Assembly (NCBI RefSeq): GCF_019059575.1
Contig: NW_024881539.1
Span: forward strand, 1,116,001 to 1,180,000
Source: Amphibalanus amphitrite
Taxonomy: Eukaryota; Arthropoda; Thecostraca; Balanomorpha; Balanidae
Direction: 5' to 3'
DNA length: 64,000 nucleotides
Shown here: piece by piece, positions 24,102 through 63,678 of the stretch
Layout of the letters: every line of letters starts with the position of its first letter
How positions within the stretch are numbered: position 1 is the first letter of the stretch
Notes under the pieces: generated by a model
The model's database searches: none
Told to the model about the DNA's origin: nothing
The model's input: only the letters and a program-made list of their open reading frames with translations
Made by a program: the position numbers and the translations under genes

Positions 24102-24189
24102 ATGGCGTGCTCGTCACTGGTGCCACTGGTGCTGCTTCTGCTGGTGCTAGAGCGTCAACTGTCGGACGCCACCAACACAATCACAATCG
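24102..24189 (+). CDS. iGluR exon 1 (signal peptide)
   Basis: The ATG follows CAGCACC. It encodes a Leu-rich hydrophobic core ([12 protein letters not shown]) and ends in phase 1 at GTAAGT. The start is supported by the signal peptide and the phase match. Confidence 0.85.
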
Positions 24190-27100: not shown

Positions 27101-30100
27101 TAACATGATCGACGGACGGTTAATTTATAGTTCTTAAGTTTCACTGCGTACAACTCGTGTGAAATAATTGCATTATAGATAAGCTTCACTCTATCACCGA
27201 TTATGACATTTTAGATTCGTTTGCATGTTTGTCAGAACTAGCAGCCTTTTCAATCCGCTTCTGACGTTTTTTCCTTCATTCCTCGCAAGAGTCGATTCCG
27301 GCTCTCTTATAATACCCATCCCTTTTCTGCAAGTCCATTTTCCAGCCCCCCCCCCCCTCCCCCCTCGACGCCTGCATTCCTGCACGAGCAGTCTTCAGGG
27401 GACTGTCAAAGCGTCTAAACCAGCTCATTCCACTTTATTAGACTTAATCACCCAATTTCAGCACTTGGCTTCGCGTAATTTACGCAATTCACATCGGAGA
27501 CTGCATCTGACGTGCAGCGCGTTATCCAAGCTATCCGCCTCGTTACCCAATTAGGGACTGGGGCCCTTCTGAGAAACACAGGCGTCCATACGGAATACTT
27601 TGTTAGGATAATCGGGTTAGTAGTCTTATTGGTGTTCGATGAGCAATGATTCTCTCAAGTGCATCTGTAACGCAGGTGCGTGGCTGGTTTATTTTTATAC
27701 GGAACACATTGATCTAAGTTGACGGCGTGTATGTCGATATATGTCAGCTATTCAGTTGGCCTTGGTCTCCCGTCTCCACTTCTTTGCAGAATGCCGATGT
27801 GTGACCTTCCGTCACACAGTAATTACGCAATGGCCTGACCCGTTTCTATTACTGTCCGGACCTGGTGCAAAACATGGTCATTTGCATCTCCGACCGCGAT
27901 ACCAGTGATCTGCGCGTTTGTAGTCGCAGCCCAGATCCGTTATTCACATTACGATAAGTAGTGCACGTGTGCACTCTGGGCTGGTCTGTGACCGTCCACG
28001 CGCCCGTGCTGGTCCGATATGTTCACCGTACAGCAGCCCGAGCCGGCAGCAGCCTATGTCGTTCAGACTTTGTTTATTTCTCTCACACGAGAATCGCGGC
28101 TGGCTGAGGGATGGGGATGGGGATGGAATGGAGCACGAGCTGAACTCAAAACCAGCCGGAGTGAAGATGGCGTATATGCTGAAATTGTGTCCCTGATGCC
28201 AATCATTGTACACCAGTCACCAAAAGGTCACTTCTTTCGACGCGCACCTATATATACCCGCATAGCAAACGGTCTTGTTTATTTGTAGATAAGTGATTAT
28301 GAAATGAATATCCAAAATATTTTCGACAAAATAAAACAATCACATAACGCCAGCCTGATGAGCTTGGAAAGCTGGCTTTACGTTTCTAATTATTGATGTC
28401 TTAGTTACTTCTAGCCAACGTTTCAAAGACTCGTGCCGGTCGGTGCCTGACTCCGTCGTTAGGCTCCTGGAACCTATTTATCAACATGATTCTTGGCTTA
28501 GTGTCGGAGTCAGATAAGTTTATTTATAAACAGCGAGCCAGGGCACGGCATGTATACCAATCCGTATCTCCGTATGCATGGGGAGGGAAACTGACCAGGC
28601 AGTAAAAGCTTCGGGTTATTCACGATATGGCATCCAGGTAGGTACTGTGCTCACGCTTAACAGGTAACGTCTGTATTTGTTTCAGTTTTAATGGCAATGA
28701 CCACTGACTGCACTGAGCTGTGCCATTGATGACGTCACCTAACGTGTCTGTGCCGTCCCCAGGCGCGCTGTTTGACCAATACGAGTCGGACCCGGCGCGG
28801 GAGCTGGCCTTTCGGTACGGCGTGGAGCGGGCCAGCAGCAGCATCAAGGCTGAGGGCACCTCCATCGTGCCGCGGGTGGAGCGCGTGCCCGCCAGCAACG
28901 GCTTCCAAACGGCAAAACGAGGTAACACACCGTCCACACTAATAAACGGGGTAAAACGGTTTTCACGTGGCAAAACGGGGTAAAACAACGGCCACACGAC
29001 CAAACGAGATAGCGCAGCGACCATACGACCTAACGGAGTAAAACGTCGGCCTCTGGCCGAACCAGGTAACGATCCGTCCACACGGCCAAACGGGGTTACG
29101 CACTGACTGCACGGCCAATAGTCAAATACGCGCCCAAACGGGGTAGGTAAACCCTCTGCATCCCGATTGAACGAGGTAAGATGCCGCCACATGGCCAAAT
29201 ATACCTACTTACCCCATTTGTAATAAATCCCCTAGAATGAAACGCCCCGTCGCTGCAGTCATTGCAGCGGGCAGCAGCTTGCAACAGACTAGCCATTTTC
29301 AGCAGTTTGTATTCTGATGAAAACATTTGTTGTGTTAGCAGTCCTAATGAAATGGCTGGTGGCTTGGACAGAGGTCAAAGGAGTGCCATAAGTTACCGGA
29401 TAGAATTCGATTTAGTGTTGTTAGATATGCGCTCTAGAAGTTCGCAGACGAGAAGTGTCATCAAGGCATTTCAAGAGCTCTCGAGTTTGGTGAAGGTATA
29501 TGTCATGCAATAGTTTGGGTGGAGTCTGTCCTCTGTGACCAGCCTACCTTTTGTGACCCCGTCTGTCGTTTTTGACCCGTGCATGTCGCCTGTCATCTGT
29601 GACCCGTTGCCGTCTGCCATCCGTGATTCCATTGATCGTATGTCATCTCTTGGACTTATCTGTCGTGTGACCCCGTCTGACCTTTTGGAATCGTCTCTTA
29701 CGTTTATCATCTATGAATGTGATGCGTATATCGTCAGTCCTATTTGACCCGTCTCTGTCGTCTGCCCGCCAGTGTGCCACCTTCTGAAGGTGGGTGTGGG
29801 CGCCATCATCGGGCCGGCCGCCGAGCCGACCGCTGCGCACGTTCGCAGTCTGTGTGACACCAAGTCTGTGCCGCATATGACCACTTCGTGGCGGTACCGG
29901 CGGCGCAGTGAGCCTTTCTCGGTCAGCCTGTACCCGCACGCCGAGACGCTCAGCCAGGTGAGAGGAGGTCGCCGATAGGTTAATTCAGGACGACTTAAGT
30001 CAATATGAAGGTCACGATGAAGGTCACATCACAATGATTTGCTCCAGATCTGCGTGTAGGCATATACTTTTGCCGCTCGGTACTGGAATGTACTCGATTT

Positions 30101-33100
30101 TAGAATGTTAGCAATAGAACGTTGCTTGCTTTTTCAGAGTTTGGTCGTCGTCCAGCTTTCCCCAGCTAATATGCAATTTCGATTCGTTTCAGACCTACGT
30201 CGATATTCTGGAAACCCTGCGATGGACTAAATTTCACGTCCTCTATGAGGACAACAACTCTCTTGTCCGTCTACAAAGGGTTTTGAGAATGATGAATACA
30301 AATAATAAAATATCAATGACCGTTCGACAACTCCCGGCGAATATGGATTACAGGTGAGAATGAGATAATTAGTTGAAAACGGAAGAGCCTGCCCCCCCCC
30401 CCCCAGAACCATGCACTTATTAGCGGACACCTAACACCAGCCATGCGTGCGCAACGGATCCTTCTATTGACTAGGGTCATTGGTTTTACAAACGTCATAT
30501 TTCTTTGGCATTATTGCACCATGCAGTTTACACTAAAGACCTTACAATCATTTATTTGGCTCTCTCATTCGTCTCCATCCGTCAGACTTCTGTCAACAAT
30601 CCAATGAATGTCGTTTATTTTTCATTTTCCGTACAGGATGCTGCTGAAGGGAATTCAGAACTCCGGCGGCACCCATTTAGTGGTGGACTGCTCTGCAGAG
30701 AACATCTACCAGGTGCTGAAGCAGGCACAGCAGATTGGCATGGTCACCCGCTACTATCACTACTTTTTCACCAACCTGGTCAGTAATGATGGGGAGTGAG
30801 GCCTAAGGCGCACTTCAGGTCACACAATTATTCTTATTCTGTGTTCTGGCACTTTGATAGTTATAAAATGACGAAATGCATGTGCTCACTCACTGGCGGA
30901 TCCAGGGGAGGGGGGGGGGGGGCATTTAGGGCCATGGCTCCCCCCGCCCGTTTGCGCCCCCCCCCCCCGACCAGAGTTTTAACATAACGCCTTATATGGC
31001 GGTGCATGGAAATAAACGGGCCTTTTCGGCCATTTGCCCCCCCCCCCCCGCCCCTCCCCCCCCCAACACGTCCAGCTGGATCCGCCATTGTGCTCATTGA
31101 TGTGATTTTCTATGAAGATATAGAAGCGAAACATAAAAAAAGGGTAAAAGATTCCTCTTTGTTAACGGTTTTATATTCGGTGTAGCCGTTTTCACGACGG
31201 CCATCTGGTACCTACACATTTGGTGCACGTCTAATACAGATAAGGTGCAGATTTGGTCAAATCAGGTTCAGTGTGTCTCTTAGCAGCTATCAGCTAGGGT
31301 TGCACTTATTGCTTATATGCCTGCTTTGTCTGTCATATTATCAGAGAGCATTATCGATTAAAACACTGAAATAAATTCATAAAATGAAGATATTTGCTGT
31401 AAAAGAAATTAGGTGCAGAGTTGGTCAAATCAGGTGCATTCGCCGGATAGCCCGTCGTGAAAACGGCTTGTACCTATGTGCTCAAATAAATCCCGTCGTC
31501 TCCTTGGCAGGACCTGCACACGGTGGATCTGCACGACTTCCAGTTCGCGGGCACCAACATCACCGGTCTGCGGCTAGTGAACACGGATGATTATGACGTC
31601 ATCAGGCAGGTGCAGAGCTGGAAGGAGGCGGAGGCACTGCGAGGACGGCACGTGACCGTCTCCCCCAGAAGGCTCAGCGTGAGTGAGAGGGGAAGGGATG
31701 AAGTGCAGGGGTATACGGAGGGAGAGGTGATGAACAGTGAAAGCTACACTATAAAGAGTCTGTATGGAGGAAGTTTTTTCGGCGTAGATGATGCTTCAAC
31801 AATTATTGCTGCTTTTTATATAAAACTATCACTCTATAGTAGCAAAGAAATGGCGCGGCGATGGCATATTGGCAACTGCACCCCACTCACATGCATTCCA
31901 GAATCGGAAAATCGCAGGAGCGGGCGGCCGACGGACGACACCCATCAGCCATCTTACCATGCTAGCCAGGCTAGTGAATCGACATAATTTAAGACAGCTT
32001 TGATATTCCGGAAAATTGGATAGGATCAAAGCTGTAAAGTCGCAGAAGGACCGGCGACACCGGGGGACTTACTTGATTGAAGTTGCGTAGCTCGCCTCTT
32101 GTGTTGCTCCAAGCGGTGTCCACTCGCCTGTGGATACACACGCACTATCGTCCACAACCGATTGACCGATGTCGAAAGCCAAATACTGAACGACTGAATG
32201 GAACCGAATAAATGACTGAGTCGAATATGCCTAACTCCAAACGAATCGCTCGCCTGAACCGAATGCCTCACTGGTCTGCGTCGTCGTTGGTTATATAGAA
32301 GTCCCTGGACACACGGCTCACCTGGCTCGAACAGAATCACTCGCTCGAATCGAATGCCACGCACTCCGCGTCGTGGCTGCTTATGTATAGGGGACAGCGG
32401 CCCGCATCGATTTTCATCGACCGGCGTCCGGCTCACATGGACCAAAAGCGGCTTGATGAGGGGCCGTACAGGGGGGGGGGGGGCGTGCGGGGTGCGGGGG
32501 AGGTACCGTTCGGAGGGAGGGGTACGGAGGGAGGGTCTGTGCAGAGGGAGGGGCTATACGGAATGATGTGTTGTTCGGGGGGCTATTGAGGGTTGGATAT
32601 CCCAGCGTGAATCTGTAACGGTGAGCGGAATACAGTAACGGAGAGTGGCCCAGAGGTGTGTTCTGGGCAAATATGACTTTACAAGTGTTCAGTTGTGCCA
32701 CTGAGTCAAGCCTCAAACGACAGAATTATCACCAGTATAACGCCTTTTGGGGCGACTAACGGAGCGAGCGAGAGGGTGGGCCTTGCACGTGCGAAATTGC
32801 GAGGGGGTACTTCCAACTGACTTGTGCACGGCACCCTACTAACCGGTCTCTAGCGATGTGCCAAATTTGGGCACAATCGGCCCAGCCGTTCTCGAGATCT
32901 GGAAGCGGCACCCTGCACGTGCGCACGTGCAAAATGGGTCCCAACTGACTTGTGCACGGCACCCTACTAACCGGTCCCTAACTGTGTACCAAATTTGAGC
33001 GCAATCGGTCGAGCCGTTCTCGAGATCTGGAAACGACCCCTGCACGTGCGCACGTGCAGCAGCACCCCAACTCTGGCACATGTATATGCAGTGCCTAGTG

Positions 33101-36100
33101 GGTGCCTACCTACATGCCAACTTTCAGCGCAATCGGCCAAGTAGTTACCGAGATATTGCAACAATTACAAAACTGACACCTCTTCGTTTTGCACGTGGCA
33201 CGTGCATAAGGGGTCACCCACATGCATCGGGAATAGTCCAATACTTGGTAGAAGGAATGAAGCTACCCTACAAAAATTACCGCATGTAAATCGGTCAAGT
33301 GGTTGCTGAGATATAAGCCTCGCAAAAGCGTCCGCACGGCCGGCCGGCCGCTCATACTCAGAAATTTCCGTTATTCTACGTAAGACTCCGCTCGCTTCGC
33401 TCGCTCCGTAACGAAATATGTGTATACCTGACAAAACCATAAACATTAAACACCAATAATTATTTACTCACAAAAGGCATGCGCTCAACATCAATTGAAT
33501 TGAAGTAACTTTCCCAACACAACCATTGTCAAATCTTGACAATGCACTTTATTCCCGAGTGGAAGCCTGCTCCCCCACATCCCACGTCAGCTGTTTCGGG
33601 ACCAAACCCGCCGTTTTGGGACAAGTACGCGACGTCGGCGGGAGCCTGAACGCCGACAGCCTCTCCAATATCGTCGCTCGTCCATTGTCTGGCCGAGACG
33701 TCTGCCCGCCGCTGGCGACAGCAGCTCTCAGCCCGGCTTTATCGGCCGGTCGTCGTCGCCGTCCTCTCCCCACAAACCGGCGCCGCCGGCCGGCCCACTC
33801 ACAGCCATCGGCGGTCGATGCTACTGTATCCTCCACCGGCCCACCGGCAGAATTTCGGACGTTCCCGGCCTCCCGGGGTGTGTGGAGCACCCTGTCACTG
33901 ACCGGGAGTGCTGTCCGTCAAGGTGTCAGGCCGTAAAACACCGCCCGATGGCCGCCGGACACTCCATAAAATCGGCGTTATGATAAACGAATAACCCGAG
34001 TTTGGAGCATGAATGTCGCTGACACGAGTGGACTGGTGGCTGGCTTTGATTTATGGAGCAGCCACTGAAGCTAGGATTGGGCGATGGTATACGACTTGGA
34101 AAAGTTGAACGGCCCTTTTTGCTCCTTTGGAACCGCTTACAGTTATTTATTTTCGACGGTCGGATTCCGCCGAATCGTCCATCTAACTCAATCTAAGGCC
34201 TAAACGACCGTTTAAGGGCCTGGGGCTGGTCGCGACGGACTGACCTTGTCAGACTTTAGTAGAAAAGCCTGCAGAAAAGAGTGTTAGCCTTTTCTATGGA
34301 TTATTCTCGGTCACTGCCGTTTGGATTATTAAAAAAAACGTTTTACGCCGTTTTACACTAATGCCTTTAGTAGCTACCTCACATTACTTTGCTGTTGAAT
34401 GCAATACAAGTTTAATGTCAGTTCGTAAGGCTAAGGAATCTGTGCTATATAGCGGTAGCCCGCAGCAGGCTCTCCGAGAGTTGTTTTCCAGCCAATTAAC
34501 GAGATGTTTACCGCCAAAGATACTGCACTATGGCTGCTGACAATTCATCGTGTATCTGATGTGCGCTGTTACAGACGGAGGCAGCACTTCTGTACGACGC
34601 CGCACTGCTGTTCGCCAAGGCCGTCGATGACCTGCACGTGTCACGTGACATCCGGGTCATGTCACTCAACTGCGACATGGACGACCTTTGGCCACACGGA
34701 GAGAGCGTCCTCAACTACATGAGAAACGTGAGTGTATTTCTAATGACAGCCCAGAATATGATTAATTATGTAAGGTAGGTATATTCATTTTAGAGACATG
34801 TACCAAAATATTCAGAATAAACGATTGCCATGTTGCATCGATACTTGCTAATTCAATCGTTGAGGAGTAGTGTGATATGAAAATCCAAACGCACACCCTC
34901 GCACAGAAAACTTTCCAGCCATTGTTATAAAACATGGTCACTTATTTCGCCAAGCGTACACCATGGTTACAAACCATCCGTCCTTGAAATCTGTCTTTAT
35001 CTGATTTGCATAGCATGCAAATATCAAATATGTATCAATAATGCACCGAGCCATGTGCTACGTCTCAAAACAGGATATGGATGAGGTTTCTTCCTCCAAT
35101 ATTTCACATAATCCAAGGATTTCGGCGCTGCTCTCAAGATATGGACGCTGCTGGTGTGGTGACTGGTGTGATAAATGGGATTTAGAGTGTCTCATTACGG
35201 TAGCAGGATGAGATAAATGGGACAACTCAAACTCAAACGGAGCTATTTGAGTCGGAGCCATGACTGCAAGCTGAAAACTGCCTCAAAGAGACATCGCTTC
35301 TCCGACATCGCTAAACTATGAGTGGTACCTAAAAATTGCATGGTGCTGCATAGTGCAAACCTTTAACCCTATTCCTGGCGGGCTCCGCCGGGACAAGAAA
35401 CTGGCGGGGGGGGGGCCGATTCGGCCCCCCCCCCTGAGATCTCGAGAACGAAGCAAGATAGCGACAAGCGGTAAACGGCATCGGATACGCACGGCCAAGA
35501 TCTACAATTTTTACTAAGGTCATTTTCAGGTCAGGTCAAAGATGACGTCACAGGGGTCGAAAAAGTCAAAATGGCGGCGCTAGATATGGAGAGAGTTTTT
35601 CTCGAATAACTTTCGAATTAGTCAAGATAGGAACAAACTAAGGGCATCATCGTGATCCTCTCGTCAATCCGCATCGAATGATATATATGTAATGTTGACC
35701 TCGAAAGGTCAAGGTCAAAGGTTGACCTCAGGTCACGTGACCTCGAGGTCATCATGTATATCATTCGATGCGTCTTGACGAGCTGAACACAATGAGACCA
35801 TCCACGCGTCTGTATCTTGTTCCTGTACGGAGTTATTGGCCAAAAACCTTTGGTGACCTTTGATGACGTCACATGACCTCACAGCTGCCCAACAGCAAAA
35901 CAGACCTCAAGGTAGTGAAGGTTGATCGTATATGAAGTCATGTATGGTATATGGGGCCATTCCGACCCGTTTTAGTGGTAAAAACAGGGAGTTGATTTTT
36001 CCCCCATTGACTTATAATGGGGAGGTCGCGAAATTGACCTGACCTTAGGTCACCGATATCAAAATTCCGAGATAAACAAATTGCACATACTGGTACCCTA

Positions 36101-39100
36101 ACTAAACCCTGAAGAGAAGAAATTGATCAGTCAAAAACTCTAGCTCTGGCGTGATTGCAAACTTTTCTGAGGTAGGGTCACCAAACCGCCTCTGGTGACC
36201 TGACCTGAGGTCAGATCAACTCAAAATTTTCAGACATGTTGCGTAGAAGCCTTTTAGGAAAAGTCAGAAAATTTGAGCTTCCTAGCTTAACGCGTTTGGG
36301 AGAAATAACCAAAAAACCTCAGGGGGGGGCTCCTGAGGCCCCCCCCTCGCCAGGAATAGGGTTAAGTGGCAGACGGATAGTTCAATTATTCTTTATATTT
36401 TTATCCGACCTTGAGTTGTTGTCTCATCGTTTATTTTCGGTACCTAGCCGACTTCTGACTTTTTACGCACGAGACAGTATGTCGGAAGTTCGAACCGTGA
36501 CCTGGGACACTCTGCTCCTCAAGAACAGGTGCAGACAGTCTATCCACTGACCTTACATCCGACGTCCTCAGGTGAAGCTTTAGCAGCTAATCCCTGGCCT
36601 GACACACATGGCATCCCCAGGTGGAGGTTCTGGGCCTGACCGGTCTGGTGCGGTTCGACACCACTGGTGTGCGCTCCCACTTCTCGCTGGATGTGGTGAC
36701 GCTGCTAGACGAGGGCCTGGTGCCGCTCGGCCGTTGGACGCCCGAGGGGTTCAGTGCCTCCGGTGCCGACAACAGGACGCGCGTCGTACCCAGCATCAAG
36801 AACCAGAACCTCACCGTTACAACTCTGCTGGTGAGCTACCGTGATAATTGTAATATAAATGTTAGTTTTCTTTATTGATGATGTGATAAATGTTATTATT
36901 TGGTTTCACAATTTTATATGCGATATATTACAATAAGAAGGCTTTGTGTGGCCAGCTCATATTTTGTGATCGTTCTTGAGTTCATTCAAACGCATATCCC
37001 TCCCTAGAGACGGGCCAAATCTTAGAGTTGTGCGATCGTATCCCTATTTCCTCCTCAGAAAGAGCCGTACACAATGCTCAAGGAATCATCTGAGGAACTG
37101 GAGGGCAACGACCGATACGAGGGAATCTGCGTCGACCTTATCGAGGAGCTGGCGCAGGCTCTCCACTTCAACTACACCATCAAACCGGTGCCCGATAACG
37201 CTCCGGGCAAGTACGACCCCGAGACGGGACGGTGGAACGGCATGATTGGAGAGCTACTGGAGGGCAGGGCCGACCTGGCCATCTCCGACCTGACCATTAC
37301 CTTCGAGAGGGAGGCCGTCGTCGACTTCACCATGCAGTTCATGAACCTAGGTCAGTCGGGGAAAGGTGGCGGTGCTGTGGATGATGATGTGGGCGATGAT
37401 GATGGTGATGATGAAATGTGGCGAAGTGAAGACCATTGCGTAGTCGATTGAGACAGTCTATGAAATGTTAGCTCAAAATGTCGATCTCTTCAGTCAAATA
37501 TTGGCCTGCATTTTTCAATGTACATGTTTTGGACGCAAAGGTCATTCGAAAAAAGAATGTACGGCGGCCATTTACATTTCCCTTGCACATGTTTACAACT
37601 TCCTGGCGCTATATTGGCTTATCAGCAGTGATTTTGTTTGCATTTCAGGCATCAGTATTTTGTACAGGAAGCCGACCCGGGAGCCTCCGTCACTCTTCTC
37701 CTTCCTCTCCCCTCTGTCTCTGCGTGTTTGGCTGTACATGGCCGGTGCCACCATGGGCGTCTCACTGCTCATGTTCGTCCTGGCCAGGTATGAAACGCAA
37801 ACAGCTCGACTGTGATTGGAAATGTCGTGGACAAATGTTACACAGCAAATATTACATAGCCGCCAAGAGATGGCGCCAGTGGTAAGCGCCTGCAACTAGA
37901 CTGCGCCGCCATCCACCCGGAGCCGTGCGGCACAGTATACTTTCAGGCGCCTACTACTAGCGCCATCTCTTGACGGCTGTGTGAAACTGCGTAATTTTGA
38001 CTTCGAATCACATCTTATGCCAGCAAAACATAGCTTTCTCTTGCGCTGTCATTCAAATGCATTGTTTTCAACTAACTTTATCACAGATTATCTACACAAT
38101 ACCAATACAGCCTCAACGGCCCATTTGATGCCGCTATATGTAGGGGAGAGCGGGGTTAAATGTAACACGGGGCAATTGTAACAGTGTTAATAATTCATAA
38201 ACTTACCAATAGAATGAGCTGATGTTAAGACCAAAAATGCGTAATTCTATACTGCCTTTCCCAACAGAGTTTGAGGCGAAAGTGCCGGGTATGTCGATGA
38301 CTGTGCACAGTTATGTGTTTTTGAGAGCATTTTGTAACTTTTTATACCGTTATATTTGATTAGCTCACTCCCGCCATTGAAAAGATATCGACTTAAGACT
38401 TTGTGTAAGCGTTAGCAGGCTTGTTGCCCATAAATTGAAAGCATTAAATGCTGTACATGCAACATCTTTTTTGCGCCAGTTTCGGCTAAAATATGTCAAG
38501 GCGCGACGGGGACAATTGTAACATTTTTGCAGGGGTCAAATGTAACAGGCTATAGGTCAGTGCCCATTATGTCAAAGTCGTCAAATTTTCAAGGAAGACG
38601 AAACATTGCTAGAATTAAGAGAACTGGAAGTTTAATCGCAATATCGGCAGTTTTTTACGCGATTTATTTGCGAAAAAAACCGAGGGAGAGGAGGTCTATC
38701 CAACCCCTGCATAAGTGCGAGGTTTTAAGCCTTTATTCCTGAGAAGAAACGTACCTACCAAGTCTGGGAAGATGAACAAGTGTCCAATACTTTCGTTAAG
38801 TCAAATTTTTGGAAAAAATGTGTTGCTGTAGCCTGTAAGTTAACATGCTACAATTGTCCCCGGGTGGTGTTACTTTTGACCCCGTATCTGGGGTGAATTG
38901 TAACAGCTGAATTGACTTTTTCAGACAACAATTTTAACCCGAAAAAGAAGTTATTTCGGAAATGTTTTAGCTGCATTTTAAAGACAAAACATCGTAGTTT
39001 TTGATAATAAAAGAAAGAACTTAATAACTGCAAATGTGTTTGCACCAAGTGATAAAATGCAAAAAATGTTACAATTGACCCCGTTCTCCCCTAACCAGTA

Positions 39101-42100
39101 ACCACAGCACTTTTTCTTGTCAGGTTCACACCGTACGAGTGGGAGCCCCCGCACCCGTGCGCTCCCGACCAGGAGCAGCTGCAGAACAACTTCAACTTCC
39201 TCAACTGCATCTGGTTCTGCATCGGCTCCCTTATGCAGCAAGGATGCGACTTCTTGCCGAAGTAAGTGTAGTGTGTCGTTCGAACGTGATTGTTACTTTT
39301 TGGTGCGATGAAAATTTCGTGGAAAGTTTTATGCGCACTATGCCCATTGCCCCGACTCGCTACTGCTCTGCTCTATTAGCTCTGCTGCTTTTACTTACAT
39401 AGTCATGGTGATAATGGAAACACTTGCAGTTACCGGAAGACGATAATGATAATTCATTTAAATGAATTTGCTATCTAGTTAGATTTGGCATAACTAACTT
39501 AAATCGTTCTTTTCATCTCACAGGGCGGTATCTACTCGAATGGTCGCTGCGATGTGGTGGTTTTTCACTCTTATCATGGTAAGTCCATTCAATTGCCTAT
39601 CTCGATTTCTAGACACACTAAAGCATATGTAATGTATAGGAATTTTTCTCTCGCAATTTAATTACCAGTATAACGCCTTTTGGGGCGACTAACGGAGCGA
39701 GCGAGAGGGTGGGCCTTGCACGTGCGAAATTTCGAGGGGGTACCTCCAACTGACTTGTGCACGGCACTCTACTAACCGGTCTCTAGCGATGTGCCAAATT
39801 TGAGCACAATCGGCCTAGCCGTTGTCGAGATCTGAAAGCGGCACCCTGCTCGTGCGCACGTGCAAAATGGGTCCCAACTGACTTGTGCACGGCACCCTAC
39901 TAACTGGTCCCTAACCGTGTACCAAATTTGAGCGCCATCGGTCCAGCCGTTCTCGAGATCTGGAAACGACCCCTGCACGTGCGCACGTGCAGCAGCACCC
40001 CAACTCTGGCACATGGATATGCACTGCCTAGTGGGTGCCTACCTACATGCCAACTTTCAGCGCAATCGGCCAAGTAGTTACCGAGATATTGCAACAATTA
40101 CAAAACTGACACCTCTTCGTTTTGCACGTGGCACGTGCATAAGGGGTCACCCACATGCATCGGGAATAGTCCAATACTTGGTAGAAGGAATGAAGCTACC
40201 CTACAAAAATTACCGCGTGTAAATCGGTCAAGTGGTTGCTGAGATATAAGCCTCGCAAAAGCGTCCGCACGGCCGGCCGGCCGGCCGGCCGGCCGGCCGC
40301 TCATACTCAGAAATTTCCGTTAATCTAAGGAAAGACTACGCTCGCTTCGCTCGCTCCGTAACAAAAGCTATATTTGAGGGATTAGAAAACTCAAAACAAA
40401 TAAGAAACCCCAGCCGGAAACATGCGTAGGTGCCAGTTCCCGATTTTCACCGACCACGGTGCGCTGCCTACAGATATCTTCGTACACTGCCAACCTGGCA
40501 GCGTTCCTCACGGTGGAGCGACTGGTGTTCCCCATCACCTCTGTAGAGGACCTGGCCGCGCAGAGCTCCATCAAGTACGGACTCTACGAGAGCGGTTCCA
40601 CGGCCACCTTCTTCAGGTCAGCACGCAACGAAACCCGGCTGTGACAACGGTGCATCTATATTCAGATTATCCGTGTGAAAGACTGCCGTATTTTCTGCTC
40701 ACGAAGGGAAGTCGAACATTGGCAGGGAACATCTGCTGAACCATAGACCCGTGCCCATAAATGCAATTATTGCGAGGAACAGCTGCTGGCCCGTAAACCT
40801 TGTATGCCCGTATGCCTATGTACCTATGTACGGGTAGATCGACCTCTGTTTAATAGATATGCATCGATTTATGATATTACGTACTTTGCATACGGTCGGA
40901 GTTTCAGCTAAGACATCGCCACTCAGCATTGCGACTCACTGCTCTCCTAACCCACACCCTGAGTTAGTAGCGCCTGACCAGCCTGGCAAACGCACAATCC
41001 TCAACGCTTGACCAGCCTGGCAAACGCACCATCCTCAACGCTTGACCAACCTCTGTCGAATCACCACATCCAGGACCTCCCAGATCGCTCCGTACAACAA
41101 GATGTGGCAGGTGATGGAGTCGCAGTCGCCCACCGTGTTCCACGACACCGAGGAGGGCATCCAGCGCGTCAAGAACGACAAGGGCAACTTCGCCTACTTC
41201 ATGGAGTCGTCGTCGATCGAGTACCACGTGGAGCGCGACTGCGAGCTCTCCCAGGTCGGCGGACTGCTCGATAACAAGGGCTACGGCATCGCGCTGCCGC
41301 CAGGTAAGTGATGGAGCGAGAAGGGGATCAGTGGTACTGAACTGGCCTGTTGTGAGTGCTGGACTTAACCGGCCCGGACTTACATTTGATACTCTGGATC
41401 GGCCAGTACCGAATTCGTCATAAAAATGAAAGGATCACCGCTCCTGCTACCTTTTCTTTTCTAACCATTAACCCGCGCCCCGTTGGGCTCTGCCGAGCAA
41501 CGCGCCCGGTTGGGGGGGGGGGGGCCATTTTGGCCCCCCCCTAAGATCTCGAGAACCACGCAACATAGCGACAAGCGGTAAACGGCGTTGGATAGCCCCA
41601 ACGGGGAACTACCTTGTGACCCAATTTTATTGACCTAGGTCAAACCGATGACGTCACAGGTCAGGTCAAAGGTCCAATTTTCACCGTTTACAGGCACTTC
41701 AAGAAATGCGTTGTAAAATCGAGTAAAATGCATTTCATTGAAAATCATCGATGGGGAAATGTTCTTCAAACACATATTTTGCTATTTGAGGTCACTGATA
41801 CCAGGTCAGGTCACAGAGGTCAGGTCACGGGGGGGTCACAATATGAAAGTGTCGTGTGATACATGTTTTATGGTCCATTTTACATGACAAATGCGATTAT
41901 ATGGGTCAGGCAGCCTTTGGGGCCAGCTTAGATCACGTTTTGGTCAAGGTCAGGTCAAGGTCAGGTCAAGGTCAGGTCAAATTAGGTCAAATTTCAAAGT
42001 TAATATTTTTTGCATAAAATGGGTATCGAATCGATGCAGCTCGTCACGGGGAGTTCAATGGTGGTCTTTGTTTTGCCGTACGTGGTCTAGAATTGCTAAA

Positions 42101-45100
42101 AATTGAGTTCAAAAATTTGACGTCATCATTTTTGAACAGTTTTTTCGCTATAACTTGGCCAAAAAACGAGATATCGATCTGAAATTTGGTATGTATATAG
42201 AAGAGCGCTGGGACTATCACATATATTCCGGTTTTTTCGAAATTCAGAAAATTTTTGGATTTTTTCAAAGTTTTTCTAAAAAAATTAATTTTTTGAATTT
42301 TTTTTGGTCAAAAACCAAAAATTTTGAAAATCCGAGATAGCAGTTTTGTAGCGCCGCTTTTTGTCTACTAGACCATTTAAAGAACTTTGAAATTGCTTGA
42401 TAACTGTAGATTTGGTGAGCGTTTCAAGATTGCATGTTTTTTGCTCATTTTTGCTCGAACATGACCTCAGTTTGACCTCAATAACTCCTGACCTAAGGTG
42501 ACCTAAGACTTGAAATTTGGTGTGAAGGTGTCAAATTGATGCCCGGGAAGGTACTGAAAATTTGACGGCGCTGCGCGCCGCCGTTTTCTTGCTATTCAGG
42601 AAAAACCACAGGGGGGGGCCAAAATGGCCCCCCCCCAACGGGGCGAGGGTTAACACGCCTAACAACCACGGGTATTGAGCGATGAGCATGGTGTTTACAT
42701 GACACTCTATCGTTGTGGTAGCTGCTACTGCTTCGCTTCTCGTTACCTAACAGTCTTCGGGCATCTGTCTGATCCGTGTCTGACTTCTGAGGCCTGAGGG
42801 CTTATGGCTGGGACTTCCCTAAAAAGTTGATAAAGAAACCGGGCCAGTTCCACTAACATGTCTGTACTCAGCGCTGCTTACTAATCTGACCTTTACGATA
42901 ATCTGCTTGCCCTGTCCTTTGTCCTGACCGCCGTGACCTGACCTCGGTCAATTGCCGGTCAGGCTCGCCTCACAGGGACCGGATCAGCTCAATGATCCTG
43001 CTATTCCAAGAGAAGGGAGTGCTGCAGCGACTCATCACTCGCTGGTGGAAGGAGCGGCGGCTCAATGATAAATCCGAGTGCAAGGTAGCTGTTCTGCAGT
43101 TCTGCATTCGTGTCGGGTCTCAGCGGCAGCCTGATCGCCGCGCCGTCACGGACTGCTCACGTCCTTGACTTGACAATTGATGTTGTTCGGTAGTTAGATG
43201 TAGCACAGCACACCATTTGGTTCGTCACCTTTTCAACCGCCAATTACAGCCGCGAATCCTAGCGCGAATACGAAATCTTGATTTTTGTTTGTCCGCTACT
43301 CTTTTACATTTGCATGATCACATCATCATGCCACTACTTTGGTTGACTGCATTATGTATACGTACTTTGGATGCCCTGTAAAGGTTCTTGTCTTGGAATA
43401 TATTGCGCTGTTTTCATTTTTTTTTTTTGCACAGGTGCCCGTTTGACCTCCGCTATTATATCAATATGTTTTCAGACTTTCAAGAAGCAGTTGATTGATG
43501 TGTAGCTGATGCCCATGTGTGCAATGTGTGTGTAGTGTGCGTATGTGTCGCTCCTTTCAAACTAGTCACAGAGAGCAGTTTCTAGCACGGCTGCGGACTG
43601 CGGAGTCGATGCATTTTCGGGTGACTCCGACTCCGACTCCGGAAGTTTCTCTCAAATTTCATATAATAATAATAATGTGCATTGTGAAGATGATTTTATT
43701 TTACATGAAACGATACTTTATGCGCCCCTAGGCCTTGTATTGCAAACATGCTTTACAGCTAGCATGCATAATATAAAGCAGGTTCCGGCGAATCCGCCGT
43801 TTTCTGCTTCTTTCGCTGAAAACGCTAGTCCAATACAGTAACATGACCTTCTTTTGACAAAATCTGCGTAGTATCGTCAAGCAAACTGGTGCAAAGCAGG
43901 TCGTTGAAGCATGCAGCGTGTTCACTCCGACTCCGGAGTAGGAGTCGGTAAGATTTTGGCGACTCCGACTCCGGGCAGCATTGTCGACTCCGACCGACTC
44001 CAGCTCCGACTCAGACTCCGCAGCCCTGGCTTCTAGTTCCCAAATGTTTTATATGCTCTCCTTAGATTGCACGGTTATGTATTATTTGTGTTCAGTGTTC
44101 TTAGCTCAGTAAGAATGACTCGCCCTCGTAAGATCAGCATGTGCGCGTATGTAACCTGCCCCCGCACGGAGTCTACTCGGCTCAAACGAGCATCTGAACG
44201 TGTTGCATCCCTTTCTCTGTGTAGATTCGCCTTGGACCAACCAGCTCAACGAGCGGCTGGTCTACATGCAGGAGCAGGGCAAGCTGGCAGAACTCAAGAA
44301 CAAGTGGTGGAAAAACGACGGTGCTCAGTGCTCTGTACGTATTCGCATTTTACGGCTCGTAATTAACGGCTGACAACCCGTGGTTATGGCGTGCAACTCA
44401 CGGTGTTACATAATTCACAGTTCATGGCTTAACCTTCCAGGCGGTGGGGGGGGGGGCATTTTTTTGCCCCCCTTTAGTTTTTTCAATATATCTCGAGAAC
44501 CGCTGCGCCGATCGTCACCAAACTTTCAGCACCCTCCCGGGAGCAGCTAGCGCACATGGTGATCAAAAAAATTTCCAAAGGCTATGATAGATTGGCCGCT
44601 AATGACGTCAGAGTGACGTCATTTTTGCCATTTTCGACCCAAAAAAAAAAGGTTTCGCGGGAAGAGCTGTCAGGCCTACAGCTTTAGAGATACAGAAAAA
44701 ATGTTTTTGACATAAAAGGTGTGAAATCAAAAGGGCTACAAAACTGCTATTTCGGTTTTTTCGATTTTTTTTTTGGGTTTTGACCCCCAAAAATCCAAAA
44801 ATAGATTTTTTGAATATAATAGCCAAAAAATCCAAAAAGTTTTTTGAATTTCGAAAAAACGGAATATATGTGATAGTCCCTACCGCCTTCTATCTACATA
44901 CCAAATTTGAGATCGATACCTCTTTTTTTGGCCAAGTTATAGCGAAAAAACTGTTCAAAATTGATGACGTCAAATTTTCAAAATCAATTTTTAGCAATTC
45001 TAGACCTCGTAGCGCAAAACAAAGACCACCATTAGACTCCTCGTGACGAGCTGCATCGAATCGATACCCATTTTATGCAAAAATATCAACTTTGAAATTT

Positions 45101-47052
45101 GACCCTTTTGGACCTGACCTTGACCTGACCTTGACCTGACCTCCACCAGAAAGTGACCTAAACCGTACCTGATGGTCTTATAACCAACACCATTGAGTTG
45201 GAAATGAAAAACTGGCCATAAAACATGCATCGCATAACCTTAGTAAAGTTCGGCTCATGTGGTGACCATTGGTGACCTTTGGTGACCTGACCTGTGACCT
45301 GACCTGGTATGACCAGTGACCTCTAATAGCAACATATGTACTAGACAACTGACGCCTTATCGCTGATTTTCGACAAAATGCGTTTTACTCGGTGTTATAG
45401 CGCTTTCCCTAGAAGCCCCGTGAACGGTGAAACATTTTATCTTTGACCTGACCTGTGACGTCATCGGTGACCCCGAGGTCAATGAAATTTGGTTTCCTTC
45501 GACGAATTTGACAGGGCTATCGAACGCCGTTTGAATTTTCCGGATCCGTCCAGTAGTTTCGGAGATACGGGGGGGGGGCAAAAAAATGCCCCCCCCCCCC
45601 ACCGCGCGGAAGGTGGCTGGTAGGCCCACCGCTTGCCGGGTTAAGGCCTGGCTACACTATGCGTTTTCTGCGTGCGTTTTTTGCGAGTTTGCGTGATTTG
45701 CGTAATATCGTTCTAGAAAGAAACGACATTACGTTTTGGTTATGTTTTTCATGTAAACTTTTAATTAACATAAGTTTTATTTTATTTTCTGTAAATATCA
45801 AAGAAGTTATATTAGTAATAACTTTTTTTTTCTAAAACGATATTACGCAAAACACGCAAACTCGCAAAAAAGCACGCAGAAAACGCATAGTGTAGCCAGG
45901 CCTTTACAGTTCACGGTGGCGCCAGTTCATGACCTGGCGCATACAGCTGTGATTGATTGTGTCTCACAGTCACAACCCGGTTCAGTGCTATAAGCTCACG
46001 GCTCACAGCTTTGTTCACGACTTAATCTCATGGTATACAGCTCGATATGTACTATGTACTTCCCTGTACATAGTACATAGAGAGTGTAGACAGTGTCTGA
46101 TTACACTCAGGCCATCGGAATAAAAACGGACGGTTTACCGGTCTCTGAATGCGACAGATCACCGAAGCGAAGAGCGAGGTAATGTAAAATCCCACGCACT
46201 CTGAAAACCAGGCGTTCAATTTGCAGAAGGTATTTGTTTAGTAACTCGATGTGGCGTACCCATCGACTGTCTCCTTTCCAGTGTTCACGGCCCACCTTGA
46301 TACCGACACCCGAGGCCTAACCTGCCCTCCCTCCCCTCGCCACCGACAGGATGACCGTGGTAGGTCCAGCTCGGCGGCCAGCGAACTGGACTTGGAGAAT
46401 GTGGGCGGCGTGTTCGTCTGCCTGATGGGCGGCATGGTAGTGGCCACGCTGATCGCCGTCGTCGAATTCATCTTCCACCTGCGGGACCAGGCCTCAGACG
46501 ATAACGTGAGTTCGCTAGTGTCAGCCAAACTGTGCGAGGATCGATCATTCTCCAGAAGCGACCAGTTGCATGGGTCCTTGAGATCCACTTTGCAGTGAAG
46601 GTATAATAGTATAGGCGATCCTTCATTTTCCAACGTTACGCCTACGGTCTTGACGGTGATTCTCAGTGTTATTCCTTGCGTTTGTTTTCTATCTGATGGC
46701 TCTTGACAATAGTTTGCCAATTGCCACACGGAAGTCTTTATCTGCTCTGTGTTCATTGACCTGGGAACCTGTCCCATCAAGTGTCGAAACGTCCTATTAT
46801 CTTCCTGTGTCAGGATGTTTGACCTCTAGCTGCCCCCCCCCCCCCCCACTCTGGCAGACCTCGGTGCTCTCCGAGATGGGCCGTGAGCTGCGTTTCATCC
46901 TGCGGTGTCACGGCAGCACGAAGCCAGCGCGTGCACCGCCGCCGGCTGAGAGACGCGGGTCCGGCTCTCACGGCCTGGTGGCTTTCAACGAGGCGGCAGC
47001 GCGGAAACACAGCGCTGCCTACGGAGACTTCGGGACACCGGCTGTCTCCTGA
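24102..47052 (+). CDS. Grik (GRIK2-like): Kainate-type ionotropic glutamate receptor subunit
   Basis: Exons: 24102-24189, 28763-28921, 29773-29957, 30193-30353, 30637-30778, 31511-31678, 34575-34727, 36621-36830, 37059-37350, 37649-37787, 39124-39261, 39524-39578, 40474-40616, 41074-41303, then 42963-43084 (15a) or 44225-44334 (15b), 46350-46505 and 46858-47052. All junctions are GT-AG and in frame, giving 911 aa (15a) or 907 aa (15b), like vertebrate kainate subunits. The order is signal peptide (1-22), amino-terminal domain (30-405), S1 (423-540), M1 (545-565), pore (595-611, Q604 at the Q/R site), M3 (614-641 with SYTANLAAF), S2 (645-790), M4 (810-833) and a short tail. R506, T673 and E722 match the ligand-binding Arg, Thr and Glu. 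The predicted role is a glutamate-gated cation channel at the membrane. The paralogue number cannot be fixed. Confidence 0.96.
24190..28762. other. iGluR intron 1 (4.6 kb), no gene recognised
   Basis: Long open frames at 24333-24815 (minus), 25757-26404 (plus) and 25877-26287 (minus) show no recognisable domain and lie in GC-rich patches. A 20-bp unit CGGTCACCATTCGTTACAGC is duplicated at about 26049-26093, and a C run lies at 27348-27363. Confidence 0.45.
28763..28921 (+). CDS. iGluR exon 2 (start of the amino-terminal domain)
   Basis: It encodes [19 protein letters not shown] and on to NGFQTAKR. It enters and leaves in phase 1. Its last bases and donor are the seed of the minisatellite that follows. 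Confidence 0.9.
28911..29210. repeat. Minisatellite containing repeated splice-donor-like units
   Basis: About ten degenerate units of 25-35 bp around ACGGCCAAACGAGGTAAC extend from the 3' end of exon 2 into intron 2. Many units keep a GGTAAC, GGTAAA or GGTAAG core identical or close to the authentic donor at 28922. Confidence 0.75.
29520..29765. repeat. TGTGACCCGTC-type degenerate minisatellite
   Basis: Units of about 20 bp such as CTGTCATCTGTGACCCGT run up to the polypyrimidine tract of exon 3. Open frames on both strands reflect the repeat. Confidence 0.65.
29773..29957 (+). CDS. iGluR exon 3 (amino-terminal domain)
   Basis: It encodes [18 protein letters not shown] to PHAETLSQ. The IIGP motif is typical of the periplasmic-binding-like fold of kainate subunits. 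Enters phase 1, ends phase 0. Confidence 0.94.
30193..30353 (+). CDS. iGluR exon 4 (amino-terminal domain)
   Basis: [20 protein letters not shown] to RQLPANMDY. Acceptor TCGTTTCAG, donor GTGAGA, ends phase 2. Confidence 0.93.
30637..30778 (+). CDS. iGluR exon 5 (amino-terminal domain)
   Basis: [19 protein letters not shown] to YYHYFFTNL, very close to the family's YYHYIFTTL segment. Donor GTCAGT, ends phase 0. Confidence 0.95.
30888..31094. mobile_element. Short inverted-repeat MITE with G/C tracts (intron 5)
   Basis: Ends CACTGGCGGATCCAG and CTGGATCCGCCATTGTG form an imperfect inverted pair around G-run and C-run segments. It is about 200 bp and non-coding. Confidence 0.7.
31511..31678 (+). 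CDS. iGluR exon 6 (amino-terminal domain)
   Basis: [20 protein letters not shown] to SPRRLS, matching the VNMTGF segment of kainate subunits. Phase 0 at both ends; donor GTGAGT. Confidence 0.94.
32225..32400. repeat. Local duplication of about 100 bp (intron 6)
   Basis: Two diverged units beginning GAATCGCTCGCCTGAA and GAATCACTCGCTCGAA, each ending near a TTATATA/TTATGTATAG motif. Non-coding. Confidence 0.5.
32731..33413. mobile_element. CACGTGC-rich repeat, copy 1 (intron 6)
   Basis: About 680 bp. The ends TAACGGAGCGAGCGA and TCGCTCGCTCCGTAAC are inverted. Internal ~125-bp units share CCGTTCTCGAGATCTGGAA and a GCACGTGCGCACGTGC palindrome. Copy 2 at 39664 is nearly identical and copy 3 at 57481 is diverged. 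No transposase is seen. Confidence 0.82.
33414..34574. other. iGluR intron 6, right part
   Basis: GC-rich stretch at 33560-33930 with open frames on both strands and no recognisable protein content, then AT-rich sequence up to exon 7. Confidence 0.4.
34575..34727 (+). CDS. iGluR exon 7 (amino-terminal domain)
   Basis: [20 protein letters not shown] to SVLNYMRN, equivalent to the AALMYDAV helix of the family. Phase 0 at both ends. Confidence 0.94.
35363..36365. mobile_element. TTAA piggyBac-like non-autonomous element F (intron 7)
   Basis: It begins TTAACCCTATTCCTGGCG and ends CCAGGAATAGGGTTAA. Hairpins lie at about 35402-35432 and 36321-36347. The body has AGGTCA/TGACCT, TGACGTCA and CGAGATCTCAG-type motifs. 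No transposase. Confidence 0.85.
36621..36830 (+). CDS. iGluR exon 8 (end of the amino-terminal domain)
   Basis: [20 protein letters not shown] to NLTVTTLL, matching the GLTGRITF and VTTIL segments of the family. Phase 0 at both ends. Confidence 0.95.
37059..37350 (+). CDS. iGluR exon 9 (ligand-binding half S1)
   Basis: [10 protein letters not shown] through [15 protein letters not shown] and [16 protein letters not shown] to the [16 protein letters not shown] motif. R506 is the alpha-carboxyl-binding Arg. Asp499 and Thr501 replace the Pro and Ala of vertebrate kainate subunits. Ends phase 1. Confidence 0.97.
37649..37787 (+). CDS. iGluR exon 10 (end of S1 and M1)
   Basis: GISILYRKP, then the hydrophobic M1 helix [20 protein letters not shown]. 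Acceptor CATTTCAG, donor GTATGA, ends phase 2. Confidence 0.97.
37850..37983. mobile_element. Palindromic MITE (intron 10)
   Basis: Arms AGCCGCCAAGAGATGGCGCC and AGCGCCATCTCTTGACGGCT are inverted. It shares GCGGCACAGTATA with the element at 60810-60920, so both may belong to one family. Confidence 0.65.
38141..39094. mobile_element. TIR element with GGGGCAATTGTAACA-type ends (intron 10)
   Basis: It begins TAGGGGAGAGCGGGGT and ends with the inverted ACCCCGTTCTCCCCTAA. The motif CAATTGTAACA recurs several times in the body in both orientations. It is about 950 bp with no transposase. Confidence 0.78.
39124..39261 (+). CDS. iGluR exon 11 (M1-M2 linker and pore loop)
   Basis: [20 protein letters not shown], then the pore [18 protein letters not shown]. 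The Q/R position is encoded CAG (Q604). Ends phase 2 at GTAAGT. Confidence 0.97.
39524..39578 (+). CDS. iGluR exon 12 (55 nt, first part of M3)
   Basis: [18 protein letters not shown] after an AG-G split codon. The STR and WWFFTLI residues match the family exactly. Acceptor TCTCACAG, donor GTAAGT. Confidence 0.96.
39664..40362. mobile_element. CACGTGC-rich repeat, copy 2 (intron 12)
   Basis: Nearly identical to 32731-33413 over its whole length, same orientation. The main difference is an expanded GGCC run at about 40269-40300 (shorter in copy 1). Confidence 0.85.
40474..40616 (+). CDS. iGluR exon 13 (M3 SYTANLAAF gate and start of S2)
   Basis: [20 protein letters not shown] to [13 protein letters not shown]. 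Thr673 lies at the ligand-contacting Ser/Ala-Thr position. Ends phase 2. Confidence 0.97.
40975..41050. repeat. 34-bp tandem duplication before exon 14
   Basis: ACCAGCCTGGCAAACGCAC with ATCCTCAACGCTTG occurs twice in a row, just upstream of the exon 14 polypyrimidine tract. Confidence 0.7.
41074..41303 (+). CDS. iGluR exon 14 (S2)
   Basis: [14 protein letters not shown] through [19 protein letters not shown] to [10 protein letters not shown]722 is the ligand amino-group contact and C734 one half of the S2 disulfide. Ends phase 1, which both version of exon 15 accept. Confidence 0.97.
41468..42653. mobile_element. TTAA piggyBac-like non-autonomous element G (intron 14)
   Basis: It begins TTAACCCGCGCCCCGTTGGG and ends CAACGGGGCGAGGGTTAA, with G/C hairpins at both ends. 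TGACGTCA at 41649-41656 is followed by overlapping AGGTCA sites. A denser array at about 41937-41990 has an 11-bp period. Nearly identical to element J. Confidence 0.88.
42963..43084 (+). CDS. iGluR exon 15a (alternative end of S2)
   Basis: Acceptor GCCGGTCAG, donor GTAGCT. 122 nt, entering phase 1 and leaving phase 0. It encodes (G)[20 protein letters not shown], then TRWWKERR and [13 protein letters not shown] and the QEKG helix resemble classical kainate subunits. Cys794 can pair with C734. Confidence 0.92.
43583..44031. mobile_element. GACTCCGACTCCG palindromic element between the alternative exons
   Basis: It starts GGCTGCGGACTGCGGAGTCG and ends GACTCCGCAGCCCTGG, with runs of GACTCC near both ends and an AT-rich middle. 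About 450 bp, non-coding. It lies between exons 15a and 15b. Confidence 0.75.
44225..44334 (+). CDS. iGluR exon 15b (alternative end of S2)
   Basis: Acceptor CTCTGTGTAG, donor GTACGT. 110 nt, also phase 1 in and phase 0 out. It encodes (D)[20 protein letters not shown], then [14 protein letters not shown]. Cys790 occupies the same disulfide position as in 15a. It keeps SP, QExG, WWK and Cys but little else in common with 15a. Confidence 0.93.
44429..45644. mobile_element. TTAA element H (intron 15b)
   Basis: It begins TTAACCTTCCAGGCGG and ends CCGCTTGCCGGGTTAA, with G/C hairpins at both ends. It is the reverse-orientation, uninterrupted copy of element C. TGACCT repeats lie at about 45105-45145. 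Confidence 0.86.
45641..45906. mobile_element. Palindromic MITE abutting element H
   Basis: Arms AGGCCTGGCTACACTATGCG and its inverse CGCATAGTGTAGCCAGGCCT extend through CGTAATATCGTTCTAGAAA-type inner repeats. About 265 bp. Its left edge coincides with the TTAA of element H. Confidence 0.82.
46350..46505 (+). CDS. iGluR exon 16 (M4 helix)
   Basis: A Ser/Asp-rich start, ELDLENVGG, then the hydrophobic M4 helix [20 protein letters not shown]. Phase 0 at both ends, so it accepts either 15a or 15b. Confidence 0.96.
46858..47052 (+). CDS. iGluR exon 17 (cytoplasmic tail and stop)
   Basis: [20 protein letters not shown] resembles the membrane-proximal tail of kainate subunits. A Pro/Ser-rich end then reads to TGA at 47050-47052. 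The acceptor follows a 16-nt C run. Confidence 0.92.
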   Translation, partial: TSVLSEMGRELRFILRCHGSTKPARAPPPAERRGSGSHGLVAFNEAAARKHSAAYGDFGTPAVS

Positions 47053-47641
47053 CCGGCGGTCAATGGTGTCAGGGGTCACTGACAGATCAGTAGGCTGGTG
47101 GACCACTGACGGGCCTTCAATGGAATCAGAGGCCGCCGACAGATCAGATGTTACTGAACGCTCAGCAGCATCACTGACAGGAAAGATATCGAGAGCGGAT
47201 GTGGAGACTGACGTTCAGTGACGGTGGCCAGCGGACGCCAGTGACTCGACCTGGAAGAAACACTGCTCTTTGGCCATACGGCCGCCTGAACCTTGCCGCT
47301 TGCGTATGTGTGGTAGGAGCACTCAATGGACGGACACAATGCCCTGGCAATGGGTTTACTCTGTTACATCTGAGCTCGGCCGCCGACGGGCTCAGTTGGA
47401 GCCCTGCTTGCGCCAGATGGAGCTGGCCAGTGGAGTGCTGGATGATTGGGTGCATGACCGAATGTCAACTTCGGGATAAAGACTGGTGTTATTGTAGGTC
47501 ACAATGGAAGAGTTTCTCCGAAGATATCTCGATTTACGAAATGCGTTGCTCGTACATCTTTTTGGATGTTATTCTTGTAGTTGTAGTGCGTGTAAGAATA
47601 CCTGTTTCCTGTAGTGCTTTGCATGCAGATGTAATAATAAA
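47053..47641 (+). other. Probable iGluR 3' UTR with poly(A) signal
   Basis: AATAAA at 47636-47641 is the first canonical signal after the stop. A diverged 60-bp duplication around GACAGATCAG lies at about 47050-47145. A 192-codon open frame across the UTR has no recognisable content. Confidence 0.5.
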
Positions 47642-63612: not shown

Positions 63613-63678
63613 CTTCAAACTCGCGCCCCGCTCACTCGCTGGGGGGCCTGGATTTGCTCGCAATGCTGGTACGGTGTT

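What the first reader, a model, noticed from the sequence alone, without database searches (positions are those of the whole stretch)
42963..44334. Flip/flop-like mutually exclusive exons in a kainate-type glutamate receptor
Seen: two exons, 122 and 110 nt, follow exon 14 and precede the M4 exon. Both have good splice sites, enter in phase 1 and leave in phase 0. Both encode SP..., a QExG helix, WWK and a terminal Cys that can pair with C734. Using both in one mRNA shifts the frame, and skipping both also breaks it, so exactly one must be used. Known: AMPA receptors swap flip/flop exons at this same position and so change desensitisation; vertebrate kainate genes are not known for it. Inferred: an independent or ancient switch of gating in this lineage. 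The two exons share few residues beyond the core, so the duplication is old.
Basis: partly seen in the sequence, partly recalled or inferred. Interest (0 to 1): 0.92.

Follow-up and report, generated by a model that had tools for sequence, protein, structure and literature searches.

The report
Flip/flop-like exon pair, barnacle kainate receptor
A barnacle glutamate-receptor gene carries two interchangeable exons for the part of the receptor expected to set how quickly it shuts off; crabs and shrimps have a similar pair, and it resembles, but apparently arose separately from, the flip/flop switch of vertebrate AMPA receptors.

Summary
Confirmed. The window is Amphibalanus amphitrite (barnacle), a KaiR1D-type kainate receptor gene. 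Exon A (42963-43084) and exon B (44225-44334) are GT-AG exons that each join exon 14 to the M4 exon in frame; both or neither shifts the frame. A profile built without barnacle sequences finds only these two copies in 64 kb; both have coding-type third-position GC. They replace the end of the ligand-binding domain: A has R-D, B has T-N at GluK2 R775/D776, an ion-site pair of the dimer interface. Crustacean relatives swap the same site: two Portunus isoform models, otherwise nearly identical, differ there (R-T, T-N), and a shrimp model holds both copies in the same order. It is not AMPA flip/flop: gene class, exon lengths, upstream intron position and phase differ, so a similar switch probably evolved independently. 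The insect relatives fetched show no T-type here but swap the pore-loop exon. Untested: RNA use of exon A; gating. Against: the full-length barnacle record has B only, no other barnacle A-type protein was found, A evolves fast, and exon trees do not clearly tie barnacle A/B to the decapod types.

The parts
24102..47052 (+). KaiR1D-type kainate receptor gene, first to last coding exon found
   Evidence: P0001 (907 aa, A. amphitrite) maps in order along this span by tblastn
37059..37350 (+). Exon with S1 of the ligand-binding domain; holds the equivalents of GluK2 E524, D528 and K531 (E, D, M)
39124..39261 (+). Pore-loop (M2) exon, Q at the Q/R site; only copy found
   Evidence: 101 pore-loop queries all hit here (E 5e-29 to 6e-11); nothing better than E 0.5 elsewhere on the + strand in 36600-47100
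41074..41303 (+). Exon 14 (S2), ends in phase 1; shared upstream exon, holds the Cys of RDCELSQ
42963..43084 (+). Alternative exon A, 122 nt; R-D at GluK2 R775/D776
44225..44334 (+). Alternative exon B, 110 nt; T-N at GluK2 R775/D776; used in record P0001
46350..46505 (+). M4 exon, shared downstream exon, entered in phase 0
46858..47052 (+). Last coding exon with stop
41501..42660 (.). Repeat copy in the intron before A, inverted relative to the copy after B
44426..45625 (.). Repeat copy in the intron after B; the two arms enclose both A and B
   Evidence: 295 nt at 86%; 889 nt at 76.5%

Best explanation
Exons A and B are a mutually exclusive pair in a crustacean KaiR1D-type kainate receptor gene. 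Exactly one is spliced between exon 14 and the M4 exon; mRNAs with both or neither are frameshifted (shown) and would be removed by nonsense-mediated decay (inferred). The choice replaces the last part of the ligand-binding domain, from the residue before SP through the WWK helix to the Cys, and so rewrites the subunit-dimer interface, including the ion-site pair equivalent to GluK2 R775/D776: R-D in A, T-N in B (shown by alignment). By analogy with GluK2 mutants and AMPA flip/flop the isoforms should differ in desensitisation and in sensitivity to external ions (inferred). Decapods have a switch of the same kind at the same site; it arose separately from AMPA flip/flop (inferred from intron position and phase).
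For: GluK2 R775A loses the interface chloride and desensitises less, D776K blocks desensitisation, and the D776 equivalent differs between AMPA flip and flop (PMC3866869, abstract and passages).
Against: No RNA data. P0001, named without an isoform number, has B only. The exon-A region search (14 hits of 17 candidates) showed no A-type protein from another barnacle. A is a long branch (2.82) and barnacle A/B do not sort cleanly with decapod R/T. Portunus P0131 lacks the pore-loop exon, so that model may be incomplete. K531 of the anion site is M in both isoforms, so GluK2 mutant data may not carry over.
Confidence: 0.68

Rival explanations
1. Exon A is a relic or a nearly unused exon: an old duplicate that is spliced rarely or never, and the gene in effect makes only the B receptor.
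For: P0001 carries B only and has no isoform number; no other barnacle A-type protein in the exon-A search; A is a long branch; A's acceptor has 11 of 20 pyrimidines against 15 of 20 for B.
Against: A is open, in phase, with both splice sites, keeps 11 of 13 conserved positions as B does and GC3 of 0.76; it is intact with the same peptide in a second A. amphitrite model, P0002. Exon e13 of the same gene also has an acceptor with 11 of 20 pyrimidines.
Confidence: 0.15
2. Exon A is a poison exon: it is mostly included together with B, shifts the frame and lowers receptor amount through decay.
For: A+B shifts the frame. Junctions joining both exons occur in human AMPA transcripts at up to 12% (PMC8257547 passage).
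Against: A alone gives a full receptor, and its peptide keeps the family positions, which a poison exon does not need.
Confidence: 0.06
3. The pair is a real mutually exclusive switch but its main effect is on assembly or trafficking, not on gating.
For: AMPA flip/flop is reported to affect assembly and trafficking as well as desensitisation (PMC8257547 passage). The stretch from WWK to M4 is four residues shorter in B than in A.
Against: The swap falls on interface positions tied to desensitisation in GluK2 (PMC3866869).
Confidence: 0.09

Closest known systems
AMPA receptor flip/flop exons (GRIA1-4)
   Same: Two neighbouring exons at the end of the ligand-binding domain before M4; one used at a time; both together shift the frame; the D776-equivalent residue differs between versions (PMC8257547, PMC3866869 passages).
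   Different: Other receptor class; 122 and 110 nt instead of 115; upstream intron about 13 nt earlier and in phase 1 instead of 2; the R775-equivalent is inside the exon instead of being an editing site before it; A and B agree at 10 of 30 residues, flip and flop at 26 of 30 in my comparison (AMPA peptides recalled).
KaiR1D orthologues of decapods (Portunus, Halocaridina, Homarus, Penaeus, Cherax, Procambarus)
   Same: Same receptor type; an R-type and a T-type version at this exon; R-type first in Halocaridina, as in the barnacle.
   Different: R-type has R-T, not R-D; several models also show alternative pore-loop exons, of which one copy was found here. Shared or repeated origin of the exon pair is unresolved.
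Insect KaiR1D (Drosophila CG3822 and orthologues)
   Same: Best solved match to the S2 half with exon A: 5dtb, CG3822, 162.5 bits.
   Different: No T-type at this site among the insect proteins scored; the alternative part in the isoform pairs compared is mostly the pore loop.
Vertebrate kainate receptors (GRIK1-5)
   Same: Kainate class; exon A keeps the R-D pair of GluK2.
   Different: The variants in the passages seen of PMC8257547 and PMC12580572 lie in the N-terminal part, C-terminus or UTRs or truncate the protein; no exon pair at this site is mentioned there.

Membership tests
Kainate-class receptor, KaiR1D type | iGluR domain set (ATD, S1/S2 binding domain, channel) | tested here: met
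   Pfam PF01094, PF10613, PF00497, PF00060 listed for P0001
Kainate-class receptor, KaiR1D type | Closer to kainate than to AMPA receptors | tested here: met
   Full: GluK2 549 bits, GluA1 at most 492. S2 half: CG3822 162.5, GluK2 131, GluA1 at most 125. No receptor-family tree was built
AMPA flip/flop exons | Lies in an AMPA-class (GRIA) gene | tested here: not met
   Kainate-class by the scores above
AMPA flip/flop exons | Two 115-nt exons | tested here: not met
   122 and 110 nt; 115 nt from PMC8257547
AMPA flip/flop exons | Upstream intron within the R/G codon (editing base 2 nt before donor) | tested here: not met
   Intron in the codon equivalent to 771, phase 1, against the 775-equivalent, phase 2 (that the edited A is the codon's first base is recalled)
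AMPA flip/flop exons | Both exons together shift the frame | tested here: met
Mutually exclusive exons | Homologous neighbouring exons, each in frame alone | tested here: met
Mutually exclusive exons | Transcripts with one or the other | not testable with these tools
   No RNA data; indirect support only from Portunus isoform models
Flip/flop-type gating switch (works like) | Isoforms differ in desensitisation | not testable with these tools
   Inferred from residues at R775/D776

The most novel reading that the evidence does not exclude
Crustacean kainate receptors independently evolved a flip/flop-type splice switch on the same interface helix as AMPA receptors, and put under splicing control both the R775-equivalent (edited in AMPA) and the D776-equivalent (spliced in AMPA). 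The insect branch of the same gene instead varies its pore-loop exon, and decapods have both modules.
Probability: 0.55. Interest if true: 0.82.

Novelty: new variant of a known kind. Interest (0 to 1): 0.72.

Why it matters
Flip/flop is a classic example of splicing that tunes glutamate-receptor desensitisation, and the sources read here describe it for AMPA receptors only. A second switch of this type, in another receptor class and with other exon borders, would show that this interface is a repeated target of alternative splicing. It would also supply natural isoforms with which to test how the dimer-interface ion site controls gating. Crustaceans, with well-studied glutamatergic muscle and stomatogastric synapses (recalled), are good animals in which to test it.

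Tried and rejected
Rejected: a chance open frame. Lack of stops alone is weak evidence (0.13 for 40 codons, 0.16 for 36), but profile score, phase, splice sites and GC3 together are not chance. Rejected: a third copy of the exon; nothing else in the 64 kb scores above 0 bits. Rejected: a second pore-loop exon in this gene. A first tblastn had a cut output; repeated with 101 distinct pore-loop queries, all hit 39124-39261, and the best other + strand match in 36600-47100 has E 0.5 (the best elsewhere in the window, 9796-9864 and 19214-19318, have E 0.001 and 0.004 over 23 and 35 residues, outside the gene, not followed up).

Not resolved: whether barnacle A and B are one-to-one orthologues of the decapod R and T exons. 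Decapod profiles give A 42.8 (T) and 39.3 (R), B 37.1 (T) and 30.8 (R), Pollicipes B 34.3 (T) and 40.0 (R), so they do not sort A with R. The exon tree has 38 columns and 21 of 35 inner branches open; A+B alone is 10.85 log units worse (p-AU 0.059), A+B+Pollicipes B 1.77 worse (p 0.43), so a duplication within the barnacle lineage before the Amphibalanus-Pollicipes split remains possible.

Not adopted: the inverted repeats around the pair as its regulator, because copies of the repeat lie elsewhere in the window. TGCATG occurs twice near the pair and 23 times in the window; nothing is claimed. No structure was predicted. The ten paper searches brought up no paper on alternative exons at this site in a kainate-class gene, judged from listings and from passages of ten papers; one search listed 20 of 38, and most subscription journals are not held, so this does not prove absence.

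Full report
What it is. The window is from the barnacle Amphibalanus amphitrite: the joined partial protein with exon B matches record P0001 at 100% over the whole query, and P0001 (907 aa) maps in order to 24102-47052 on the + strand. It is a kainate-class receptor: the best full-length solved match is GluK2 (549 bits; best GluA1 492), and for the S2 half with exon A it is Drosophila CG3822 (162.5 bits), which I recall as KaiR1D. Four of the relatives listed (P0058, P0082, P0086, P0105) are named kainate-type subunit 1D.

The observation. Exon A (42963-43084) and exon B (44225-44334) lie between exon 14 (ends 41303) and the M4 exon (starts 46350), with GT-AG borders. Joined in silico, A alone and B alone read to the stop; both together and neither are frameshifted. 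A profile of 70 distinct exon peptides from other animals finds only A and B above zero in six frames of the 64 kb (38.8 and 32.4 bits; best of 20 mononucleotide shuffles 2.3). Third-position GC is 0.76 and 0.78, within the range of the other exons (0.58-0.95), against 0.44-0.46 GC in the three introns around them. Each exon keeps 11 of 13 positions that are at least 90% conserved, while A and B agree at 10 of their first 30 residues. Both look like maintained coding sequence that diverged long ago.

What the swap changes. Aligned to GluK2, B has T-N at R775-D776 and A has R-D. E524 and D528 of the cation site are kept; K531 of the anion site is M in both isoforms. In PMC3866869 (abstract and passages), chloride sits between K531 and R775, R775A lacks it and has attenuated desensitisation, D776K blocks desensitisation, and the D776 equivalent is N in AMPA flop and T or G in flip. 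The barnacle exon choice thus touches residues that experiments on GluK2 tie to desensitisation. That the barnacle isoforms differ in gating is inference, and the missing K531 makes the direction uncertain.

Relatives. A region search with the Homarus exon gave 55 proteins of 101 candidates. The other five pairs compared are from different species, loci or models and also differ elsewhere. Halocaridina P0006 carries the two types in tandem, R-type then T-type, as in the barnacle. Of 180 proteins fetched, 168 could be scored at position 775 and 20 have T; 18 of the 20 are named, all 18 crustaceans (barnacles, decapods, an amphipod, ostracods); 2 are unnamed. The 180 are top hits of three searches, not a census: one search listed 120 of 7615. 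The unnamed P0153 and P0154 are frames of 929 and 948 aa on contigs of 3627 and 3273 bases, as expected of transcripts, so a T-type is probably used in mRNA in some species (inference).

Insects. No named insect protein among those scored has T at position 775; most read SPYRT or SPFRT. Their isoforms vary elsewhere: of six same-species pairs compared, five (Schistocerca, Cloeon twice, Macrosteles, Papilio) differ in the pore-loop exon, three of these only there; the sixth (Spodoptera litura) differs in a three-residue tail insert. Two pore-loop copies in tandem are present in 30 of the 180 proteins, decapods included; a tandem in one model is a likely gene-model fusion of alternative exons. 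The barnacle gene shows one pore-loop exon.

Origin. In an exon tree of 38 rows and 38 columns B joins Pollicipes B (97/97), A is a long branch (2.82), and 21 of 35 inner branches are open; A+B alone is nearly rejected (p-AU 0.059), A+B+Pollicipes B is not (p 0.43). So A is probably not a recent copy of B. Decapod-type profiles do not sort A and B cleanly. One crustacean origin or several remains open.

Comparison with AMPA flip/flop. From PMC8257547 (passages): flip and flop are 115 nt, 38 residues, differ at 8-10 residues, both together shift the frame, and the R/G editing base is 2 nt before the donor. This puts the AMPA intron in the R775-equivalent codon, phase 2 (that the edited A is the codon's first base is recalled). 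Here the intron is in the codon equivalent to 771, phase 1, 13 nt upstream, and the exons are 122 and 110 nt. PMC3391646 (passages) gives flop as exon 14 and flip as exon 15. The module is like flip/flop in logic and place but does not meet its defining features.

Evidence against. No RNA data were at hand. P0001, named without an isoform number, has B only; P0002 (A. amphitrite) contains A and B with other residues between them, so it is a gene model and not evidence of an isoform. The exon-A search (14 hits of 17 candidates) found no A-type protein from another barnacle, although clustering at 90% identity could hide one in P0001 or P0003. A's acceptor has 11 of 20 pyrimidines against 15 of 20 for B.

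Verdict. The exon pair is real by the sequence tests used here, most likely a mutually exclusive pair, and part of a crustacean pattern that the paper searches did not show to be described. Use of exon A and the effect on gating remain to be shown.

Noticed in passing
P0015/P0041, P0030/P0051, P0029/P0043, P0088/P0113 (fetched proteins); window 39124-39261: Arthropod KaiR1D relatives seem to have a second alternative module: two versions of the pore-loop exon (ending CDFLPK or SDIAPK), differing in 5 of 6 isoform pairs compared and in tandem in 30 of 180 models. The barnacle gene has one copy.
   Followed up: partly
window 41501-42660 and 44426-45625: Inverted copies of one repeat enclose exons A and B (295 nt at 86%; 889 nt at 76.5%) and could pair in the pre-mRNA. 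More copies lie at about 20379-22482 and 62470-63613.
   Followed up: partly
P0002 (A. amphitrite, 594 aa): A public gene model contains exon A, extra residues and exon B in one protein: probably an annotation fusion of alternative exons.
   Followed up: partly
P0053 (A. amphitrite) and P0028 (Pollicipes): A second barnacle kainate-type gene has an unusual SPVSASEL stretch in place of SPYRT/SPWTN at the same site.
   Followed up: no
window 50721-54458, - strand: Open frame of 1245 aa, rich in charged residues and coiled-coil-like by eye.
   Followed up: no
window 32756-33289 and 39772-40222: Two nearly identical blocks with the same open-frame translations lie in introns of the gene.
   Followed up: no
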